Below, in pieces: positions 2,073 through 58,399 of a stretch of DNA of 64,000 nucleotides. The stretch spans positions 1,178,001 to 1,242,000 of the forward strand of contig NC_134368.1 in NCBI RefSeq assembly GCF_035582795.1, read 5' to 3'. This stretch comes from Mycteria americana. Taxonomy: Eukaryota > Chordata > Aves > Ciconiiformes > Ciconiidae. The notes under the pieces were generated by a model that ran no database searches, was not told the DNA's origin, and saw nothing but the letters and a program-made list of their open reading frames with translations. How positions within the stretch are numbered: position 1 is the first letter of the stretch; every line of letters begins with the position of its first letter. Both the position numbers and the translations under genes were made by a program.

Positions 2073-4541
2073 TTCAGCGTCCCGCAGCCTCCTCCTGCCG
2101 CGTTAGGAGCTGCGATTCCGAGCGCTTTGCGGTGCAGAGAGCTTTGCAGGGGCTGTCCGTGCCTCAGTTTCCCTTCGCGCTGCAGTCCGTGTGAGCTGGG
2201 AAGTGGGGGGGGAAGCTGGCGCTGGGTTCCCAGCCCCGGAGCGGCAGCGGGCAGCGGGGCTCAGACGGGTGCCGGGCTGAAGGAAGCAGGGTTCGGGTTG
2301 GGCTCGTGGCAGCGGGGCTCTGGAGCACCCTGGTTTGGGGGCTCGGGGACGGGGATGGTCCTCGGCCGGGAGGATGGCCTCCAACACATCCCTCCATCTC
2401 CGTCCTGCCCGGCACAGCGAGGCGAGGCCGGGACTGGGCTGCTGCACCCAGGAAAGGCCAGGAGATGCTGGGCCCGATCCGCGGGCGGCGGTGGTGGGCG
2501 TGGGAAGGGTGGGTGCTCCCTGCCAAGGAGACGAGGAGCCCGCTGCCACCTCCCGCCGTACGCCCAGCTGGGCTTGGAAAATGCGGCTTGTGGGCAGCTC
2601 CTGGGCGCTTCGTGCCCATCCTCGAGGACAGAACCACGCTGACGGGGTTTTTTTTTGAGGTCTTGCTCTTCCAGAGTCGGTTGCTTGAGGGATGCTTCGA
2701 GCGGAGAGCGCTGGGGCCGTGCGTTTCTGGAGGGACTTACGCCAGACTTTCGTTAAGACGTCGATAACGACGCGGGGCTGCGGGGCTGCGGGAGGCCCAT
2801 TCGGCCCCGCCGCCGCTGCTGGGGGGGCTCGGTGCTCCCCAGAATCCGGCAGCTCGAGGGGGTCCCCGCCAGAAAAGCTGGTGGGCTGCTAATTCTGCGT
2901 CAGGTCGCCGTGCCCCGGGAAGCGGGACCGTGGGAGCGCTCAGCCCTGCCCAAACCCGTCCCGCTTGCCGGCACGGAGGGACCGACGGGGACGGTGGGGA
3001 GGGGACGTCAGCCCTGGGGACCCGGCTGGGCCGTGACGTGGGCCCAGCGGTCCCGCTGGCAATGAGGGATCGGGGGTCCCCGTGCGGGGCCGAGGCGTGC
3101 GTGGGCAGGGACCGTCCTCAAGAGCTTCCACGTGGGACCCTGCGGGTACGGGGGGGTAGGACGTGGGCTGGCAGCGGCCCGGCGTCCCAGGAGGTTTCGG
3201 CTGGGGGATGTTAGCTCAGCCCCGTGGTCCCGGTGTCCCCCCCATCCCGCGGGAGCACCTCCCGTCGCTCCTCCCCGAGCATCCCCAGCCTCCGGCCGGC
3301 TTCGCCCGGACGTCGGCTCCACTATTATGTCCCTGGAAAGGGGCCGGGGGGCTGAGACCTCCTCCGCCCCCACGCTCCATTAGCTCCGTACTGTGCGTCT
3401 ATTGTGCCGGAGGACGCGCGAGGGCCGTGTCAGTGAGCGACTGTCCTGGCCCCAGCGAGCTTCTGGTGACTTGGATGAGTTCGAGACCCGCTGGCCCCGG
3501 AGCAGACGGGGACGAAGCCTGTGCCGATGGGCTGGGGTTTACTCCCGGGGTCCCGGCCAGCGCCCGACTCGTCCGTTCCCGTCCGCCACGCTCTAATCCG
3601 AGTGTCTTCCCATCCGTCTCCTTCCCTCACCTCCATCTCCGTCCATCTGTCTGTCCCTCATGCCTCTCTCTGTCTCTCTCTCTGCCTCTCCTACCCCTCT
3701 GCTCTGCCAGGGAGGGACAGAAGCGGGGGGCTGCCCTCCCAGGGGAGAGGTTAGGGGGTGCGGGGGCAGCCGCAGGGGGACCGGAGCCGTGGGCTGGGGA
3801 CCGGGTCCACGTCCCGGCCGGGTGAGTCAGGTGCAGTTTTGGGGCAGGGGGGTCCCACGGGGCCTCAGCCCGGACTCGCTCCTTACTTCGGCCAGAGGCA
3901 GGTGGGGTGGGGACGTCCCCAGCTGGGTTCGGGCACAGAAGCGGGTCTGTGGCCAGCGATCCAGGGCCACCGGAAGCCATCCTGTCCCCTAACGTGGTTC
4001 CCCTGCGCCGTAGCAAGGCCAGGGACCCTCCACCCTGCTCGTGTCTTGGTCCGGCGAGGGAAGGGTTTGCAGGTGGGGACACAAACTTGGGTTCCATGAC
4101 CATGACAGAGGAGAACCCAGCACATCCCGTAGCTCAGCTCCCCCGGGAGAGCCAGGGCAGAGCCGGGCAGCGGCGGGGGGGCTCGGCCCCGGGCGCCGGG
4201 CTCCTGTCCCCAGGCTCCCATCCCCGGGCTCCCAATCCCGGGCTCTCGTCCCCAGGCTCTCGTCCCTGGGCTCCCATCCCCGGGCTCCTGTCCCGCTCCC
4301 TCCTGGCACCTGCAGGAATTCGCCATTTCCCTGGAAGCGGCAGGCGGGAGCGACTTCTCCGCAGTCCCTGTGGCGGGGGGTGGATCTCGCTTGGGTGTTT
4401 ATTTTAATACGTCTCTTTCTCTCTCGTATCTCTCACTCTCTCCTGGTTCTCGCCTCTCTTTCCCCGGCCCCCCCGCGCTCTCTTTCCATCCGTCCGTGCC
4501 TTTCTGTCCCCCTGCCCCGTCCCCCCCGCTCCCTCCCCCAG
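2073..4541. other. VAX2: VAX2 intron 2, GC-rich sequence without recognised genes
   Basis: This stretch runs up to the VAX2 exon acceptor. It contains a degenerate 14 bp repeat (GGGCTCCCATCCCC-like) at about 4198-4300 and a pyrimidine tract of over 100 bases before 4541. No coding exon was recognised. Confidence 0.5.
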
Positions 4542-5033
4542 GTCAAGGTCTGGTTCCAGAACCGACGCACCAAGCAGAAGAAGGACCAGAGCAGGGACTC
4601 TGAGAAACGTTCCACCGCCACCTCCGAGTCCTTCGCCACCTGCAACATCCTCCGGCTGCTGGAGCAAGGCCGGCTCCTCTCCGTCCCGGCCCCCCCCAGC
4701 CTCCTCTCTCCCACCTCCAACCCCATCGGCAGTCCGACGGGCGACGGATCCGGCTTGGCCACCCCGGGAACCACCTCTCCCGGGCTCGGCGGTGGAAGCA
4801 GCCCCCCGGGGCCGGGAGCCTTCAGCCTGCAGGTCCCTTCTCTCGCCTCCTCCTCCTCCTCCTCCTCCTCCTCGCCCAGGCTGCCGGCCGCCCCGCTGTG
4901 TTTTGGGGGGCCGCTCCTGGGCAGCCTGCACGACCTCCCGGGCGCTTACGGACTGGGCACTTCTGCTTTTGAGCCTTACACGCGCCTGGAAAGGAAAGAC
5001 AATTCTATACCCAGCAAGAAGCCGAGCCCTTAA
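4542..5033 (+). CDS. VAX2: VAX2, last coding exon (partial gene)
   Basis: This is the 3' terminal coding exon of ventral anterior homeobox 2, a nuclear homeodomain transcription factor that patterns the ventral eye. A CAG acceptor ends at 4541 after a long pyrimidine tract, and translation starts at the family's conserved exon junction with VKVWFQNRRTKQKKD, which is homeodomain recognition helix 3. The following block SESFATCNILRLLEQGRLLS and the C-terminal FEPYxxLERK motif match VAX2. The exon encodes 163 residues before TAA at 5031. A run of nine serines comes from a CCT microsatellite at about 4847-4873. I looked for the preceding exon (first part of the homeodomain) in 1-4541 and did not see it, so the upstream exons lie outside the window or in a gap. 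VAX2 rather than VAX1 is chosen because of this C-terminus and the adjacent ATP6V1B1 and TEX261. Confidence 0.95.
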   Translation, partial: VKVWFQNRRTKQKKDQSRDSEKRSTATSESFATCNILRLLEQGRLLSVPAPPSLLSPTSNPIGSPTGDGSGLATPGTTSPGLGGGSSPPGPGAFSLQVPSLASSSSSSSSSPRLPAAPLCFGGPLLGSLHDLPGAYGLGTSAFEPYTRLERKDNSIPSKKPSP

Positions 5034-9372: not shown

Positions 9373-33740
<24,368 letters not shown>

Positions 33741-33887: not shown

Positions 33888-33893
33888 AATAAA
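33888..33893 (+). promoter_or_regulatory. Poly(A) signal AATAAA of ATP6V1B1
   Basis: AATAAA lies 148 bases after the ATP6V1B1 stop codon and is followed by GTGGTC. It implies a short 3'UTR ending near 33910, leaving about 0.8 kb before the next gene. Confidence 0.8.
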
Positions 33894-34747: not shown

Positions 34748-37700
34748 ATGGCCTGGGCGGGGGACGGCGCCGAGCAGCTGGCAGGTAAGGTCCCCCGCGC
34801 GCGTGCCAGGACGCGGTGGGCTCACGCGTCCCTGCACGCCTCGAGGCAGGGTGGCGGGGGTGTCCCCTGTGACCGTCACCGTGGCCTCTGGGCGGAACGA
34901 GATGTTTACAGGGCGTGAAACCAGCCCAGAACCGGGCCTGGAGGGGGATTATTTGTGTCGTGTGTCCCCCCCCGCTCAGCCCTGCGTCGCGGAGGGGCGA
35001 GTGGCCGGCGCATTGCATTTAGATGGACTGCCAGCTCCCAGGCATGATGTGCGTCTGCCCGCCTGTCCGTCCGTCCGTCCCTCTGCCGCTGCCCCCAAGC
35101 CCCCCACCCCGGAATGACGGGGGGACCCCGGAGCACCCGGGGACAAGGGAGCCTGGGTGCATCCCCCGCCGAGCTCCCCGGTTCCGACCGCCAGCCCCCG
35201 CCGGTGACCGTCCCCGGGGACACGCTCCCCGGCACGTGCCCGTGCGCGCTCCGTGGGGTCTCGCACGTGGGTCCCCCCACGGGGCTGGCTCGACGGGGGA
35301 AAGCTCGGCGGTGCCGGGGAGCGCCCGGCCCCCCCCGTGTCACCCCGGTGTCCCCTCACACCCGCGGCCACCAGCCGAGCCCGGCGAGGGCACAGCTCTG
35401 CAGTGGCACCTCTCGGGAGAGCCGTGGGCCAGGGCGTGCCGGGGCGGCGGGGTGCTCCGGGACGGCTTTTCCCTCGCCCGGCATCGCTCGCTGGGATTTT
35501 TCCCGGCTGCGCTCCCACCTCCTCCGAGCAGCCCTTGACTCCGACGCCCTCCGCTCCTCTGCTGCCGCTGTTAAAGAGGCGGTCGCTACCGGCTCGGATT
35601 TTTGGGGGCTGTTCCTGCCGTACGGACTTTCCCGTTTTCCGTAGGAGGACGCGGCTCCAGCGGCCGCAGAGCCATCGCCAGCCCCCCCCGCCCACGGCGC
35701 CGGGGGTGCTCAGCCCCCCCGCTCACGGAGCAGCACGAGACTGAGGAAAGCCAAAAGGGGTTGAAACACGTCCCGGGGTTCCGCCCGCACTGGTGACCCT
35801 CTGTCTGTCGTGCTTTTGCTTCCCCCGCAGCCGTCCTGGAGTCAGAAGGCAGCGAGGAGGAGGAGGAAGAGGAGGAGGAGGAGGATGAAGAGGCAGCTAT
35901 GGCGCAGGTATCGCTCGCCGGCTCATATTCGGTTTTGTTTCTTCCTCCTGCCTGTGTAAATCTGAGGTGATGAAGGGCCGGTCCCCCCCTGCCCTCCCCT
36001 CCAGCCGCAGCTGCGTGCCGTGGCACCGGGGTGCTGGTCGCTGGGGTGTCACGGTCACAGCGTCAGTCCCCGTGTGGCTGGCAGCGTCCGGGCGGCTCGG
36101 GGCTCACCAACGCCATGCCGTGCCGAGGCAATGCCACGCCAAGGCAATGCCACGCCAAGGCAATGCCGTGCCGACGCAATGCTACGCCAACGCAATGCCA
36201 CGCCAAGGCAATGCCACGCCAACGCAATGCCACGCCAAGGCAATGCCACGCCAACACAATGCTACGCCAACGCAATGCCACGCCAAGGCAATGCCACGCC
36301 AAGGCAATGCCGTGCCAAGGCAATGCTGTGCCAAGGCAATGCCGTGCCGACGCAATGCTACGCCAACGCAATGCCACGCCAAGGCAATGCCACGCCAAGG
36401 CAATGCCATGCCAAGGCAATGCCACGCCAACGCAATGCCGTGCCAAGGCAATGCCGTGCCGACGCAATGCTACGCCAACGCAATGCCACGCCAACGCAAT
36501 GCCACGCCAAGGCAATGCCACACCAAGGCAATGCCATACCAACGCAGTGCCGTGCCAAGGCAATGCCACGCCAAGGCAATGCCGTGCCGACGCAATGCCA
36601 CGTGCGCGTCTCTTCCCCAGCAGCATCCGACCCTCGGCCAGGAGGCGGACGAAGCGGAGGAGCGGCTGGCCGAGCTGGAGCAAGGTGAGCCCCGGCCCGC
36701 CCCGGTGTCACATCCCGGCACGGTCCCGCGTGGGGACTCGGGGGCGGCTTCGACCCCTCACCAGGGTCAGCGGGACGGTCAGGTGGGAAAATCCCTGTCG
36801 CGGTGCGGAGCCGAGTGCCGTCCCCGGCGCTGGGTGACCCGGCAGGGCTCTCCCGGCCGCTCGGCAGCGGTGGCTGTGGGCAGGGAGGAGGGCAGGGCAC
36901 CGGCCGGGACCCCCACCGGGCACCGAGGGCCGGACGGGCGCCTGAATCCGGCCTCCGCCCCTGCCAGCGTCGCAGGCGCTGCTGGCCGAGCTCTCGGCGC
37001 TGGAGACGGAGTTTGAGATCGAGAGGACGTGCCGGCAGCGAGCTGAAGCCTACGCGGCCCAGGTAGCCCTTGAAGGGTGCGAGGGTGCCGGCGCATCCCT
37101 CCCCGGTGCCCCCGGCGCGGCGACGCGGTAGAAACCCCGGTGTCCGTCCCACCGCAGGTGAAGCAGGAGAACAGGCAACTGAAGCAGCTCAGCCTGGCCC
37201 GGCCCGAGAGCGAGCCCCCCGAGGAGGACCCCGACCCTGCCCAGCGCTACGGGCAGCAGCTCGAGGGTGAGCTGGGCTGGGCTGGGGGGTCCCGGCTAAG
37301 CCCCAGCCAGAAATGGCGGAGCCAGAGGCAAAGCACCGGCCCCCGTCCCGCTCTCCCCTAAGCCCGGCTCAGCGTGGCCCCGTGGTTTTCGGTCGCGCCT
37401 GGGCCTTGTTCCGGGTAAACACCGAGAAAGCGATACTAAAACCAAATGAAGAAAAGGCGAAGTGAAAGCGCTGCTGCCCCTGCTTCCTCCTTTCCCATCC
37501 TGTTTTCCCACGTCGGCAATTTCGGCCGCGCTTGCAGCCTGGTGCTCCCTCTGCTTGTCAGTACCGGGGGGTGTCCGGGGGCTGCACCCCTTTGGGGGCT
37601 GCACCCCTGGGGAGATGCACCCCTGGGGAGGTGCACCCCTGGGGAGGTGCACCCTTGGGGGACGCCCCACGCCAGCCAAACCCCCCTCGTCCCGGTGACG

Positions 37701-40700
37701 TTGTGACTTTGCCCATGGGCTGACCCTCGGGGGATGCCCGGGGGCAGCTTTGGGCAGGGCGAAGGGCGCTGAGCGCGGCCCCCGGCGTCCCGCGGGTCGC
37801 GAGCCCACCCCGCCGCCGCGCGCCTGTCCCTCTGCGTCACCTCCCGGAACCGGCTTCCAGCAGGGACGCTGGTGACACGGCCAGGCCGGGGGTGAGCTGG
37901 GGAGGGGGCTGCTGTAGCACCACCCGCCTGACCTCAGGGACCGGCTCCGGGGGGGCTGCGCTCCCCTTGCCCACCCCTCGCTCCCCCCTTCTCTCCCAGA
38001 TCTGCAGGAGAAGATCTCCTGGCTGCTGGCGCAGCGGAAGGACCTCACCGTCCAGGTCCAGGAGCTGCAGAGGCAGAACCAGGACCTGCAGGACCAGGTA
38101 CCTCCTGGGACCCCCCCACCGGGACCCCCCTCCCCTCCCCGAGCAGGGTCTCCCTGCGTCCCCCTCCTTGCTCCGCTCCTTCCCTGGCTCCTGCTCATCC
38201 TTGCCGCTCCTTGCGGAGCTCAGGACGGGTTTTTGGGGAGGAAAGACCCCGCTCCGCGGCCCCTCGCCGTCTCCCTGATGTCCTGGGGGGGGTGGGCTGG
38301 GCAGGGCGGGACCCCCCGGCCGAGCCCGGGGCTGAGCGGGGGCTCGTCTGCTGCAGCTGGAGATGGGGCAGGGGGAGCGGCAGCGTCTGCGGGCGGCCCT
38401 GGGCACCAGCCAGCGGGCACTGAAGTCCTTCAAGAGAGGTGAGCCGGGTGCGGGGTCCCCACGGCCACGTCCCCTGTCCCGCCGGCAGCCCCGGCGAGCC
38501 GGCGACGGAGCGGCCGGCAGCTCCCCAGTGCCACCAGTGCCACCCGGTCCGGCGAACCGGCGAAGCCAAAGGCAACGGTGCGGCACTGGGAGCCGCAGCT
38601 GGATCGCCCGGGGGTCCCTGTCTGCAAGAGGCGGCTAAGCCCAGACCCCTGGGGTGGCACGCACCCCCCGTAGCGGTGCCGGCCCCCCCCCCGAGCCCCC
38701 GCTTTCCCCGGCAGTGTCCCAGATTGTCACCCAGGATTACTGCGAGGCGGTGCAGCGGCTGGAGCTGGAGCAGGACCTGCGCCTGCACGCCGAAGCCTTC
38801 GCCCACGAGGTGTGGCCGGGCCCCGGGTGCCGGGGGGGGACGCAGGCACCCACGGGGGGTGGGAGGGCGGAGGGGGGGGCTGTTTGCTCTCAGCGCAAAC
38901 ACCCCGATACTCATCCCGCTGCTGAGATCCCGAGAGGACGAGGATGCTCCCGGGCGCCCGTCACGGTCCCCCGGCACCCCAGGGGTGAGGTCGGATGGGT
39001 TTTGCTCCCAGCCTCCCCGGAAAGGGTTTTATTTTTTTATTTTTTTCTCTCGCGGGGGCGAGCCTGGGGCCTCGGTCCCTCCCCGACCCCCGTCCCCGTG
39101 GGCAGATGCTGGTGCAGAAGAACGAGGCGAACAGGCAGAGCACGATCCTGCTGCAGGGCGGGGGGCCCAGCGCCCAGCTGCTGGCAGCCCTGCAGGAGGT
39201 GGGACGCCTGAGCCGGGCGCTGGAGGAGGCCAGGCGGCAGCAGCAGCAGCGGGTGAGGAGCCGTTGTCCCCGAGGGCGGGTGACGTGGCTGGGGGGCAGC
39301 AGGGCTGGGGCACGGCACGGCTCCGGGGCCGGCGTGCGGGAACCCGCTGCGGGCAGGATCAGACCCCTCCCTGCCCGTCCCACGCTGCGTGCCCAGCCTG
39401 CAGAGGTTGTTCTTCCGTGGATTTCCACTAGCGCGTTTCGGGTGCCAGGCAGAGGGTCCCACGGCTGGGCTACCCCCCGCACCGGGCTAGCAGCCCTCCA
39501 GGCCGCCGTCGCCCAGCCGAGAATTGCCCTAAAATGAGCAAGCGGCCAATTTGTGGGGCTGGGGAGCATCCCCCTCCCTGGCAGGGATGGCACCGGGGGT
39601 CCCCGCTCCTGGGCTGCACCCGACTCCCCCGTGTCCCCGCTCCTGCAGGTGAAGGCGCTGGAGGAGCAGCTGGAGCTGGCCCGAGCTGCCCTGGCCGCGG
39701 CGGAGGACGAGAAGCTGCAGCTGAAGAAGCGGCTGCAGGAGGCCGAGGGGCGGCTGGCGGGGCTGGAGGAGGAAGGTGGGTGGTTTCACCCCTGCCCGAC
39801 GCCGGCAGGAGCCCGCAGCCGTGCCGGAGGGACGCCCACGGCCCGGGTGGGCTCAGACGTGGGGGGGGCACCGGCCCCTCACGCAGCCCCCGCCGCACCC
39901 CGTTGCAGTGGGGTTGCTGCAGGAGAAGCTGGCCCGGGACCCGCCGCCGCAGAGCCGGACCCCCGAGCCAGCTGCGCCCGAGCCGCCGCCGCCGCCGCCA
40001 CCGCTGCCACCGCCCGCACCCACTGTCCCCGTGGAGTAAGTGACACTGCCGGGCGTCCCGGTCACCTGCCGAAAGCAGCTCCGGCAGCCCAGGGGCTTCC
40101 ACAAGCCGGGCTGGGGGCAAACCCTTCTCCCCCCCCCCGCCAATGCCACCACTCTCGCCCGCCGTGCCAGGCTGTCCCCGAGCCGTGCCCGGGCATCGTC
40201 CCCGGCAGGAGATGCAGGGTGGGGGGCAGAGCTGGCCGCAGGGGCCAGACCCCAGCACCGGGGAGGGCGAGGTGGGCCTGGAGCCGAGCGGGGGGTGCAG
40301 GCAGCTCCTGGCGCGGAGGCGGTGGGCGCGGTGGGCGCGGTGGGCGCGGTGGGCATCGCGCCTGGCTTTTTGCGGGCGAGGGGCGCAGCTCGGCCGGGCT
40401 CTCACCTCCCCTCTCCCTTCCAGCCCGCTCTTGGCCATCAGGCAGAGGAAGGGGCTGGCAAACGCCCGGCGCAGTAAGTCCCCCCACGCTGTCCCGCTGC
40501 ACCCTGGGGGGGGGGCTCCTGGTGCCACGGGGGGGTCCCCTGGGGACGGGAGAGCCCCTAGAGCACAGGGAGGACGGGCTCTCTCCGGGGCGGAGGTTTG
40601 CCAACGCCGCACCGCTGCCGGTTCAGGCATCTCCCACCCAGCCGAAAGCGTTTGTCCGAGGTCCCGTTGGGGGGTGACGGGCACCCTGCCACCCCCCCGC

Positions 40701-42085
40701 TCCCCAAAGGAGGGTGCTCGGGCCCCAGCACCCCTGTGCTGCCCGGCCCGCGTGGCTGTGCCAGCGATGCGCCCCGGCACGGGTGGGAGATGAGCCCCGG
40801 CAGGGTCATACCTGGCTCTGGGTGACGGCCGGGCTTGGTCTCACGGGAGGGACCTGGCACGGGGTGGGGGGGGGCTGCAGGGAGGTGGCAGTTCCCCACC
40901 CCCCGCCCCAGCGGGGACTGAGCCCTGTCACGAGCGCGTGGGGTCTCAGCGCGGTGCTCCCTGCGCAGCCAAGCCAGACGCTGACGACGCTAAAGCTCGA
41001 GCCGTGCAGGAGATGATGGAGCGGATAAAGAACGGGGTGGTCCTGCGGCCGGCGAAGGAGCGGGTGCCCCCGCACCAGGTAGGCAGGGACCCGGGCTCGG
41101 CCGCTGCCAGACCCCCCCCGTCCCCTGGGGGAAAGTCCCCGGGGAGCCCTGGGACTGGGGGGGGATTCGGGGAGCGTCGGCAGCCCCCGGGAGCTGCAGG
41201 GCCGGCAGGATGCGGCCGCATCTCCTCCCCGCCGATCCCGCAGGGTCCGGACGCGACGGCCGACAAGCGGAGGAGCGCGGTGCTGGAGCTGCAGGGCATC
41301 CTGGTGAGCAGCCCCGTCCCCAGTCGGGGGTGACGCCAGGCCATCGTGTGGGGACCCGGGTGCCATCGTCCCCAGCTGCAGCCGTCCCGCGTGGGGCCGC
41401 GTCGGGGCCGCCCCGGCTGGCTGGGAGCACGGCCCCGGGGGTCCCGGCGCCTGGATGCGGCCCCTCAGCATCTCGGCCGTGCGCGGTGTTTCCTAGGGTG
41501 CCGTGAGGAGGGCGAGCAGGAGGTCCAGGGGTCGGCGAAGCAGCCTGAAGGGCAGGGACGGGCAGCTGGAGTCCATCCTGCAGCGGCGGCGGCGGGCGGT
41601 GGATGGGTCCCTGCCCGCCCCCCCCGGCCCCCCGCAGCAGGACCGCGAGGATGCCGGGGCTGCGGGGAGGCCGGATCCCGGTACGGAGCGGGGCTGGGTG
41701 GGGCGGGAACGCGGGGGGCTCGCACCCCGCAGCGAGAACGTCCCCAGGGACCGGTGCAGAGGTGACACCCACGCGTGTCCCCTCGCCGCCCCGCTGCGAG
41801 CCCGAGTGACGCTCTCTGGTCCCCTCCCATCACCGCTCCCAGGGACACGCTGGCGGGCGATGGCGCGGGTCCCCACGGGCTCTGCTCTTGCTCTCACCCT
41901 GCTCCACGTCCCCTCTCCGTCCATCCGTCCGTCTCTCCCCAGGGGACAAGGACGTCGGCACGGCTCCAGCCAGGCGCTCACCGGGGAGCGAGGAGGGGGT
42001 CCCGTTCAGACCCCGGGCAGCGGGCGGCCTCCCCAGGACCCGGCCCCTCGCCCGCCTGGCCAGAGGCAGGGGCGAGCCCGGGTAG
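34748..42085 (+). CDS. Shootin-family coiled-coil protein, SHTN1 paralogue (16 predicted exons)
   Basis: Predicted paralogue of shootin-1, which links actin flow to L1-CAM adhesions in growth cones. Exons: 34748-34784, 35831-35907, 36621-36684, 36968-37062, 37158-37266, 38000-38097, 38357-38438, 38715-38809, 39106-39252, 39649-39775, 39909-40035, 40424-40473, 40969-41078, 41244-41303, 41497-41680, 41943-42085. All splice in frame to about 534 residues. The first ATG has a perfect GCCGCCATGG context. Layout: an acidic Glu run (20-33), coiled coil from about 46 to 320, polyproline (335-348), a conserved MMERIKNGVVLRP block (385-397), and a basic QLESILQRRRR block. Residues 46-80 (DEAEERLAELEQ... 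to EIERTCR) align directly with SHTN1. The first about 40 residues do not resemble SHTN1, and one N-terminal exon may have been missed. Exon 3 has a tandem CAGCAG acceptor. It follows ATP6V1B1 by 0.8 kb. Confidence 0.85.
36111..36603 (+). repeat. 16 bp minisatellite in shootin intron 2
   Basis: About 31 copies of CAATGCCACGCCAAGG and variants, ending about 18 bases before the exon 3 acceptor. It produces spurious open frames on both strands. Confidence 0.95.
37575..37660 (+). repeat. Short GCACCCCTGGGGAGGT repeat in shootin intron 5
   Basis: About five imperfect copies of a 16 bp unit (GGGGAGGTGCACCCCT). Confidence 0.8.
40311..40354 (+). repeat. 10 bp GGTGGGCGCG repeat in shootin intron 11
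   Basis: Four tandem copies of GGTGGGCGCG, the last one diverged. Confidence 0.8.
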
Positions 42086-42190: not shown

Positions 42191-42196
42191 ATTAAA
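42191..42196 (+). promoter_or_regulatory. Poly(A) signal ATTAAA, likely of the shootin gene
   Basis: ATTAAA lies 105 bases after the stop codon, in a small AT-rich pocket followed by GGGTTG. It would give a very short 3'UTR. Confidence 0.5.
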
Positions 42197-48012: not shown

Positions 48013-53898
<5,886 letters not shown>

Positions 53899-56335: not shown

Positions 56336-56736
56336 CGCTCCGCAGGCGCCGCCCCTCTCCCCCATCTCCCGTCTCCCCCGGCCCGCGGCTCTCTGGGTGC
56401 CCGGAGCACCCCCAGGAGAGGGGGTGCAGCCCAGCCCCCCCCCGCGGGCCCGGAGCGGGGAGACCCCGGGGAGAGGCAGCGGGGCCGGGGGGGGAAGGGG
56501 GGCGGTGGGGGGAAAGGGGGTGATGGGGGGAAAGGGGGTGCTGGGAGGGAAAGGGGGGGCCGGGGGGGGGAAAGGGGGTGCTGGTGACGGACGCTGCTCC
56601 CGCCGCGGTGCGGTGGGGTTGCGCGAGGTGGGCTGTTTACCCCCGGCGCGGGCGCGGGGTTGTGAGAGAGGGGGCTCGGCCCCCCGAGCCGGTACGGCAG
56701 GGTCGCACGAGCGCCGAGCTTTGTACCTGACCCGTT

Positions 56737-57960
56737 TGTTTTTGTAGGGTTGCCCGAGCGCCGGGTTGTGTACACGGCCTGTTTGTTATTGTAGGGTTGC
56801 ACGATCTCTTTGTTATTGTAGGGTTGCACTAGCATCATGCTGTATACACGACCTGTTTGTTATTGTAGGGTTGCACAGGCACCGAGCTGCGTACCTGACC
56901 CGTTTGTTATTGTAGGGTTGCACAGGCACAGAGCCCCCTACCTGACCCGTTTGTTATTGTAGGGTTGCACGATCTCTTTGTTATTGTAGGGTTGCACTAG
57001 CATCATGCTGCGTACACGACCTGTTTGTTATTGTAGGGTTACATGAGCACCGGGTTGTGTACACAACATGTTTGTTATTGTAGGGTTGCACCAGCACCAT
57101 GCTGCGTACACGTCCTGTTTTTGTAGGGTTGCACGACCTCTTTGTTATTGTAGGGTTGCACGAGCGCTGTGCTGCACACCTGACCCGTTTGTTATTGTAG
57201 GGTTGCACGATCTCTTTGTTATTGTAGGGTTGCACTAGCATCATGCTGTATACACGACCTGTTTGTTATTGTAGGGTTGCACAGGCACCGTGCTGCGTAC
57301 CTGACCCGTTTGTTATTGTAGGGTTGCACAGGCACAGAGCCCCCTACCTGACCCGTTTGTTATTGTAGGGTTGCACGATCTCTTTGTTATTGTAGGGTTG
57401 CACTAGCATCATGCTGCGTACACGACCTGTTTGTTATTGTAGGGTTACATGAGCACCGGGTTGTGTACACAACATGTTTGTTATTGTAGGGTTGCACCAG
57501 CACCATGCTGCGTACACGTCCTGTTTTTGTAGGGTTGCACGACCTCTTTGTTATTGTAGGGTTGCACGAGCGCTGTGCTGCACACCTGACCCGTTTGTTA
57601 TTGTAGGGTTGCACGATCTCTTTGTTATCGTAGGGTTGCACTAGCATCATGCTGTATACACGACCCGTTTGTTATTGTAGGGTTGCACAGGCACAGAGCC
57701 CCCTACCTGACCCGTTTGTTATTGTAGGGTTGCACGATCTCTTTGTTATTGTAGGGTCACACGAGCACTGAGCTGCGTACACGACCTCTTTGTTATTGTA
57801 GGGTTGCACAGGCACCGAGCTGCACACCTGACCCGTTTGTTATTGTAGGGTTGCACGATCTCTTTGTTATTGTAGGGTCGCCCGAGCACCATGCTCTGTA
57901 CCTGACCCGTTTGTTATTGTAGGGTTGCACGATCTCTTTGTTATTGTAGGGTCGCCCGAG
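56737..57960 (+). repeat. 47 bp satellite with a 406 bp higher-order repeat
   Basis: The core TTGTTATTGTAGGGTTGCAC recurs at 47 bp spacing, with shortened 29 bp copies ending GATCTCT. A block of several variants recurs almost identically 406 bases later (about 56960-57250 against 57366-57656). It is AT-richer than its surroundings and I do not recognise the family. Confidence 0.9.
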
Positions 57961-58399
57961 CGCCGCTGCCACCCCGAGCCGTTACCGCAGGGTTCCCGGT
58001 GCTGCCCCCTCCCCTGGAGCCCCCACCCCAGGGTGGCCGGGGCAGCACCCGCAGGCGGGGGCAGGGCCGCGGGCTCCGGTGCTGCCGGGGCTCCCACCGA
58101 GGCGTCCCCGTGTCGTGTCCGTCCCCCCCCCCCGCCGTCCCCTCTGGGTGCACCTCGGGGCGCGTGAGGGTGGGGGTCCCCGCCGAGGTGGGGGTCCCCG
58201 CGGGTGACGGGGGGCGCAGCGCCCTCCGCCCGCCCGCCAGCCCTGGGAGCGGGGACGGGGGTTGCTCCCCCAGGGTGGGTGGGCGCCGGGCCGCGGCACC
58301 CACGGGTGTCCCCCACCCTCAGGCGGGGGTGCCCCCTGCGCCTCGGCCCCAAACCTGGCGGGGGGGGCGGGGGAGGGCGGGGGGGGTGGGAGTGCAGGG
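57961..58399. other. GC-rich unassigned sequence between two arrays
   Basis: CpG-rich, mostly unique sequence with no recognised exon, promoter pair or RNA gene. Confidence 0.45.

What the first reader, a model, noticed from the sequence alone, without database searches (positions are those of the whole stretch)
34748..42085. A second shootin gene sits next to VAX2-ATP6V1B1
Sixteen in-frame exons encode a clear paralogue of SHTN1. In human, SHTN1 lies beside VAX1 and is read in the same direction (VAX1 then SHTN1). Here VAX2 is followed in the same direction by ATP6V1B1 and this gene. Human 10q25 also has SLC18A2, while SLC18A1 lies next to ATP6V1B2 at 8p21. An ancestral VAX, shootin, V-ATPase B and SLC18A cluster duplicated in early vertebrates explains all three. 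I know of no such gene in the human VAX2-ATP6V1B1-TEX261 interval, so it may have been lost in mammals.
Basis: partly seen in the sequence, partly recalled or inferred. Interest (0 to 1): 0.85.

Follow-up and report, generated by a model that had tools for sequence, protein, structure and literature searches.

The report
Second shootin gene beside VAX2 (shootin2)
This stretch of an unnamed, bird-like genome carries an intact second copy of the shootin gene, whose product in other animals links the cell's moving actin skeleton to its surroundings; such a copy is already known from fish, frogs and a marsupial but is reported missing in placental mammals.

Summary
A 16-exon chain (34748-42085, +; 533 residues; all 15 introns GT-AG) encodes a paralogue of SHTN1. 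The same genome also holds SHTN1. All 15 shared introns have the same phase in both genes and 7 of 16 exons the same length. Gene order agrees: VAX2, ATP6V1B1, shootin here; VAX1, a dead ATP6V1B exon, SHTN1 on another contig. Gene and origin are already published: Urasaki 2019 named shootin2 (fish, frog, Tasmanian devil; not placental mammals), and a 2013 medaka paper described the duplicated shootin, Slc18a, Gfra and atp6v1B segments. So the loss is reported for placental mammals, not all mammals. New here is an intact, apparently avian member. Its assignment to shootin2 rests on locus and taxonomy: no fish or frog sequence could be compared, and a phosphorylation site reported missing in zebrafish shootin2 is present here. 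No transcript was available, and the SLC18A argument was not settled.

The parts
34748..34784 (+). shootin2 exon 1 (start codon; context CCGCCGCCATGG)
   Evidence: intron phase 1 as after SHTN1 exon 1
35831..35907 (+). exon 2 (codes an acidic run)
36624..36684 (+). exon 3 (61 bases, same length as SHTN1 exon 3; the start could also be 36621, a NAGNAG acceptor)
36968..37062 (+). exon 4 (95 bases, same as SHTN1)
37158..37266 (+). exon 5; serine matching SHTN1 Ser101 at 37191-37193
38000..38097 (+). exon 6 (98 bases, same as SHTN1)
38357..38438 (+). exon 7 (82 bases, same as SHTN1)
38715..38809 (+). exon 8 (95 bases, same as SHTN1)
39106..39252 (+). exon 9 (147 bases, same as SHTN1); serine matching SHTN1 Ser249 at 39139-39141
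39649..39775 (+). exon 10 (probable coiled coil, by comparison with SHTN1)
39909..40035 (+). exon 11 (proline-rich run)
40424..40473 (+). exon 12
40969..41078 (+). exon 13 (110 bases, same as SHTN1); WH2-like motif AVQEMMERIKNGVVLRPA at 41001-41054
41244..41303 (+). exon 14
41497..41680 (+). exon 15
41943..42085 (+). exon 16 (stop codon TAG)
42191..42196 (+). candidate polyadenylation signal ATTAAA
4539..5027 (+). 3' coding part of VAX2 (second homeobox exon onward); the first homeobox exon lies about 13 kb before the window
21536..33740 (+). V-ATPase B subunit gene, called ATP6V1B1 by its place beside VAX2 and its STAL end; polyA AATAAA at 33888
   Evidence: overall identity does not separate B1 from B2
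48016..53898 (-). TEX261, on the opposite strand

Best explanation
This is the shootin2 gene (SHTN2) of a bird-like genome: an intact copy left from the early vertebrate genome duplications, still in the ancestral order VAX, ATP6V1B, shootin. Its protein most likely works as a clutch, like shootin1. The N-terminal coiled coil would bind the tail of an L1-type adhesion molecule. The central coiled coil and proline run would bind cortactin, and a WH2-like motif would touch actin. Two conserved serines could let a Pak-type kinase tighten the link. Shown here: gene structure, paralogy, age and synteny. Shown by others for zebrafish shootin2: it moves with F-actin retrograde flow. Inferred: the shootin2 name, and expression, adhesion partner and kinase control in this animal.
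For: Intact 16-exon frame. Codon-position bias and alternative-frame stops. Homology to SHTN1 far above shuffles. Same phase at 15 of 15 shared introns, 7 of 16 equal exon lengths. Equidistant from bird-like and human SHTN1: 31.9% and 30.6% over 520 columns, while these two share 78.5%; at the 112 columns where they differ the window matches only the first at 22 and only human at 15, p=0.32. VAX2, ATP6V1B1, shootin2 all +. A VAX gene and SHTN1 both + on C6 with a dead ATP6V1B exon between them. Two shootin loci found in the genome. Both Pak1 serines, the polyproline run and the WH2-like block kept. Published shootin2 range and F-actin coupling.
Against: No shootin2 or shootin3 sequence from another species could be fetched, so the name rests on locus and taxonomy. 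Urasaki 2019 reports the Ser249 site absent in zebrafish shootin2 but present in shootin1 and shootin3; here it is present. The arginine before the first Pak site is lost (KQLS, not KRIS). The L1-binding part is only about 30% identical to SHTN1 and residues 143-204 only 15-18%. Pfam shows no shootin family, and no model, WH2 included, passed its cut-off. No transcript evidence.
Confidence: 0.85

Rival explanations
1. It belongs to the shootin3 group (or is another shootin left from the genome duplications) that survived at the VAX2 locus, while true shootin2 is lost or was missed.
For: The Ser249-type site, reported absent in zebrafish shootin2 and present in shootin3, is present here. The neighbour list of the published shootin2 locus (Supplementary Fig. 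S3b) was not read.
Against: Urasaki 2019 finds shootin3 only in fish and shootin2 in frog and marsupial, so shootin2 is the simpler match for a tetrapod. A single serine can be lost in one lineage. Two shootin loci were found in this genome, though a diverged third could be missed.
Confidence: 0.08
2. It is a recent, lineage-specific copy of SHTN1 that has diverged fast in GC-rich DNA.
For: The window is 67% GC, so fast change is plausible; the 22 to 15 count leans slightly, not significantly, to the bird-like SHTN1.
Against: At sites where bird-like and human SHTN1 differ, a recent copy should match the bird-like protein almost only; it matches 22 against 15. It lies beside VAX2 and ATP6V1B1, paralogues of genes or gene remnants at the SHTN1 block. 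All shared introns are kept, which excludes a retrocopy.
Confidence: 0.03
3. A decaying or silent gene whose frame is open but no longer used.
For: No transcript data. Several stretches are weakly conserved and exon 2 holds a low-complexity acidic run.
Against: All 15 introns keep GT-AG junctions and the whole frame is open, with strong codon-position bias and a favourable start context, after a separation older than the bird-mammal split. A neutral gene would have broken.
Confidence: 0.04

Closest known systems
shootin2 (Urasaki et al. 2019, PMC6704158; zebrafish, frog, Tasmanian devil)
   Same: Second shootin at a locus distinct from SHTN1; similarity to shootin1 along the protein, proline-rich region, Ser101-type site; absent from placental mammals according to that paper.
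   Different: Zebrafish protein is 561 aa and is reported to lack the Ser249-type site; the window protein is 533 aa and has it. That paper names birds for shootin1 only.
SHTN1 / shootin1 (same genome, C6:8633207-8699789)
   Same: Same phase at 15 of 15 shared introns, 7 exons of equal length, polyproline run, WH2-like block, both Pak1 serines.
   Different: 32% identical; SHTN1 has a 17th exon and a longer tail; it spans about 67 kb in a region of 40% GC against 7.3 kb here.
shootin3 (fish only, PMC6704158)
   Same: Shootin family member with the Ser249-type site.
   Different: Reported only from fish; sequence not available for comparison.

Membership tests
shootin family | significant, collinear similarity to SHTN1 along the protein | tested here: met
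   E=6e-53 over residues 42-469; 156 bits against at most 25 in shuffles
shootin family | exon-intron structure of SHTN1 | tested here: met
   15 of 15 shared intron phases, 7 of 16 exon lengths; SHTN1 has one more exon
shootin family | Pak1 target serines (Ser101, Ser249) | tested here: met
   both serines present as S102 and S230; the arginine of the first site is lost; phosphorylation not tested
shootin family | WH2-like motif with MM in place of LL | tested here: met
   AVQEMMERIKNGVVLRPA, 60% identity over a 25-column block; motif described for shootin-1 in PMC4314737. The Pfam WH2 model is not listed for it, nor for SHTN1
shootin family | couples F-actin flow to adhesion | not testable with these tools
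   published for shootin1; for zebrafish shootin2 the paper shows movement with F-actin flow
shootin2 subgroup | groups with fish, frog and marsupial shootin2 in a tree | not testable with these tools
   no such sequence reachable
shootin2 subgroup | locus distinct from the SHTN1 locus | tested here: met
   C4 beside VAX2-ATP6V1B1, SHTN1 on C6 beside another VAX gene
shootin2 subgroup | lacks the Ser249-type site (stated for the zebrafish protein) | tested here: not met
   the serine is present; stated for zebrafish alone, so it may not define the group

The most novel reading that the evidence does not exclude
Birds kept a second actin clutch with both Pak1-type serines, unlike the published zebrafish shootin2. 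It would be either a shootin3-type or further shootin left from the genome duplications, or a shootin2 that still answers netrin-Pak1 signals, giving birds a clutch control that placental mammals lost.
Probability: 0.12. Interest if true: 0.5.

Novelty: new member of a known kind. Interest (0 to 1): 0.35.

Why it matters
It extends shootin2 to what is most likely a bird, where a published survey names only shootin1, and so helps place its loss (reported absent in placental mammals, present in a marsupial). The VAX, ATP6V1B, shootin order on both contigs, with a fossil ATP6V1B exon on the SHTN1 side, is a clean picture of one ancestral triplet duplicated in early vertebrates. It also offers a second clutch gene to test in a chick embryo, if chicken has it.

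Tried and rejected
Pfam listed 9 families for the whole protein at E up to 10, all below their cut-offs; the best, Mito_fiss_reg (18 bits, cut-off 26.3, residues 262-389), is read as composition of the coiled-coil and proline stretch; sub-stretches and SHTN1 gave nothing above a cut-off either. The PDB gave 4 chains at E up to 10, best 0.054. Rfam gathering scan: 0 matches. ARAGORN: 0 tRNAs. An ankyrin consensus search for an ANKRD53-like gene in the window found only an 11-residue chance match; recalled NAGK gave no hit in the window at E 0.01. A paper search for SHTN1 peptide strings found none. The main texts of two papers on missing bird genes gave no hit for SHTN, VAX2, ATP6V1B1 or TEX261. 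SLC18A: the genome search did not complete; locally none in the window (best E 0.73) or in 180 kb around SHTN1 (best E 1.4). I tried to confirm the B1 identity of the V-ATPase gene by overall identity: its C-terminal half is 91% identical to recalled B2 over 199 residues and 87% to recalled B1 over 212, equal bit scores, so this does not decide; the name rests on VAX2 next door, on the STAL end (B1 ends DTAL, recalled) and on HGD in one exon, where the C23 gene reads HAD. Structure prediction was not run.

Full report
No tool named the organism; I infer a bird from genome size and protein similarity. The window is 67% GC.

Observation. GC by codon position is 0.79/0.47/0.89 in the exons and flat in the introns, and the other two exon frames hold 10 and 5 stops. 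The start context is CCGCCGCCATGG. An ATTAAA signal lies about 105 bases after the stop, and the polyA signal of ATP6V1B1 (33888) lies 860 bases before the start, so this reads as a separate gene.

Homology. It has 631 residues and its KRIS and KRQS serines fall at 101 and 249, the positions named in PMC6704158. Because recall is not evidence, I then took SHTN1 from the same genome: C6:8633207-8699789, 17 exons, 626 residues, 73% identical to the recalled human protein. Against this, the window protein gives E=6e-53 at 32% identity. The real protein scores 156 bits; 198 of 300 shuffles gave a hit, the best 25 bits; the reversed protein gave 19.6.

Structure of the gene. The window chain was fixed before the SHTN1 exons were placed, though both were placed by eye, with the recalled human protein in mind. 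All 15 shared intron phases agree, and exons 3, 4, 6, 7, 8, 9 and 13 have equal lengths. Of 200,000 permutations of the phases 2 matched fully, and none of 200,000 permutations of lengths reached 7 matches. This excludes a retrocopy and confirms the exon chain.

Age. Over 520 columns the window protein matches bird-like SHTN1 at 31.9% and human at 30.6%, while these match each other at 78.5%. Where they differ (112 columns), the window matches only the first at 22 and only human at 15, p=0.32. A copy made on the bird line should match the first almost exclusively. So the split is older than the bird-mammal split. This is a three-sequence argument with one recalled sequence, not a tree.

Synteny. 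VAX2 (first homeobox exon C4:1165165, before the window; second at window 4533-4685), the V-ATPase B gene and the window gene are all on +, with TEX261 beyond on -. The other close VAX match is at C6:8578407-8580368 (+), about 53 kb before SHTN1 (+); I call it VAX1 from its place and its lower match to the recalled VAX2 stretch (71% against 82% in the second exon). Between it and SHTN1, at C6:8626150-8626254, lies a 105-base stretch matching the ATP6V1B exon IYPPINV...SNQL, with an inner stop. It is the best of about 360,000 ungapped offsets (both strands of 180 kb) for each of two related query exons, 54 and 55 of 105 bases; next best on the same strand 50 and 48, on the other strand 52 and 48 (the second query is shifted by one codon). 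At protein level it is weaker: E 0.048, then 0.037 and 0.012 in the 53-kb interval alone, 29.3 bits against at most 26.9 in 61 scrambled or reversed controls, which were searched with a different word size. Other expected exons were not convincingly found. PMC3827601 describes such Ba remnants in coelacanth, turtle and human (passages). ATP6V1B matches at E up to 1e-5 were found at two places only, C4 and C23 (24 matches). The C4 gene is called B1 by place and by its STAL end; overall identity does not decide.

Other shootins. With the window protein, 63 of 63 candidates scored, matches at E up to 0.01 lay at C4 and C6 only. With SHTN1, 70 of 109 candidates scored, there were also 9 weak matches on other contigs, E 0.013 to 0.585, all over query residues 278-413, which hold the end of the coiled coil and the polyproline run; they were not examined further.

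Published knowledge. PMC6704158 (abstract, passages, introduction and identification sections; [quoted passage not shown] birds are named for shootin1. PMC3827601 (passages, figure legends and table) states that shootin, Slc18a and Gfra occur in several copies, most of them confined to the same paralogous segments as atp6v1B (human 10q26, 2p13, 8p22; some in 5q31-33), consistent with the vertebrate genome duplications. In the listings of searches for shootin2 or bird shootin I saw no description of this gene in birds. Gene databases could not be checked; birds may well have such a gene annotated as shootin-1-like (recalled, not checked).

Mechanism. In shootin1a, residues 1-125 bind L1-CAM, 261-377 bind cortactin, and Pak1 phosphorylation at Ser101 and Ser249 strengthens L1 binding (PMC6080949, passages). 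The window protein is about 30% (111 columns) and 42% (108 columns) identical in these two parts, keeps both serines (S102, S230) but has KQLS instead of KRIS at the first. A WH2-like motif in shootin-1, with MM for LL, is published (PMC4314737, passages; rat 402-417); the same block is the best conserved of those measured, 60%. Zebrafish shootin2 moves with F-actin flow. I therefore infer a clutch role. Expression and partners here are unknown.

Doubt. Zebrafish shootin2 is reported to lack the Ser249-type site, which is present here, so a shootin3-type identity is not fully excluded; the supplementary figure with gene order was not read.

Noticed in passing
C6:8626150-8626254 of the same genome (in L018, between VAX1 and SHTN1): Dead single exon of an ATP6V1B gene (105 bases, inner stop), on the SHTN1 side of the duplicated block; best of about 360,000 offsets for two related query exons, modest at protein level.
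   Followed up: partly
36107-36602: 31-copy, 16-base tandem repeat (CCAAGGCAATGCCACG) inside intron 2 of the shootin gene.
   Followed up: no
29493-30016: About 520 bases of CTC/CTT repeats in an ATP6V1B1 intron; many other long arrays fill the window, e.g. 17056-17938, 52711-53611, 56699-57961.
   Followed up: no
35854-35893: Run of GAG-type codons in exon 2 coding an acidic stretch; SHTN1 of this genome has no such run in its exon 2.
   Followed up: no
window as a whole: The GC-rich, repeat-rich window begins 1.18 Mb from the start of a 92.9 Mb contig.
   Followed up: no
21536-33740: The C-terminal half of this V-ATPase B gene is as similar to recalled human B2 (91% over 199 residues) as to B1 (87% over 212), with equal scores.
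   Followed up: partly
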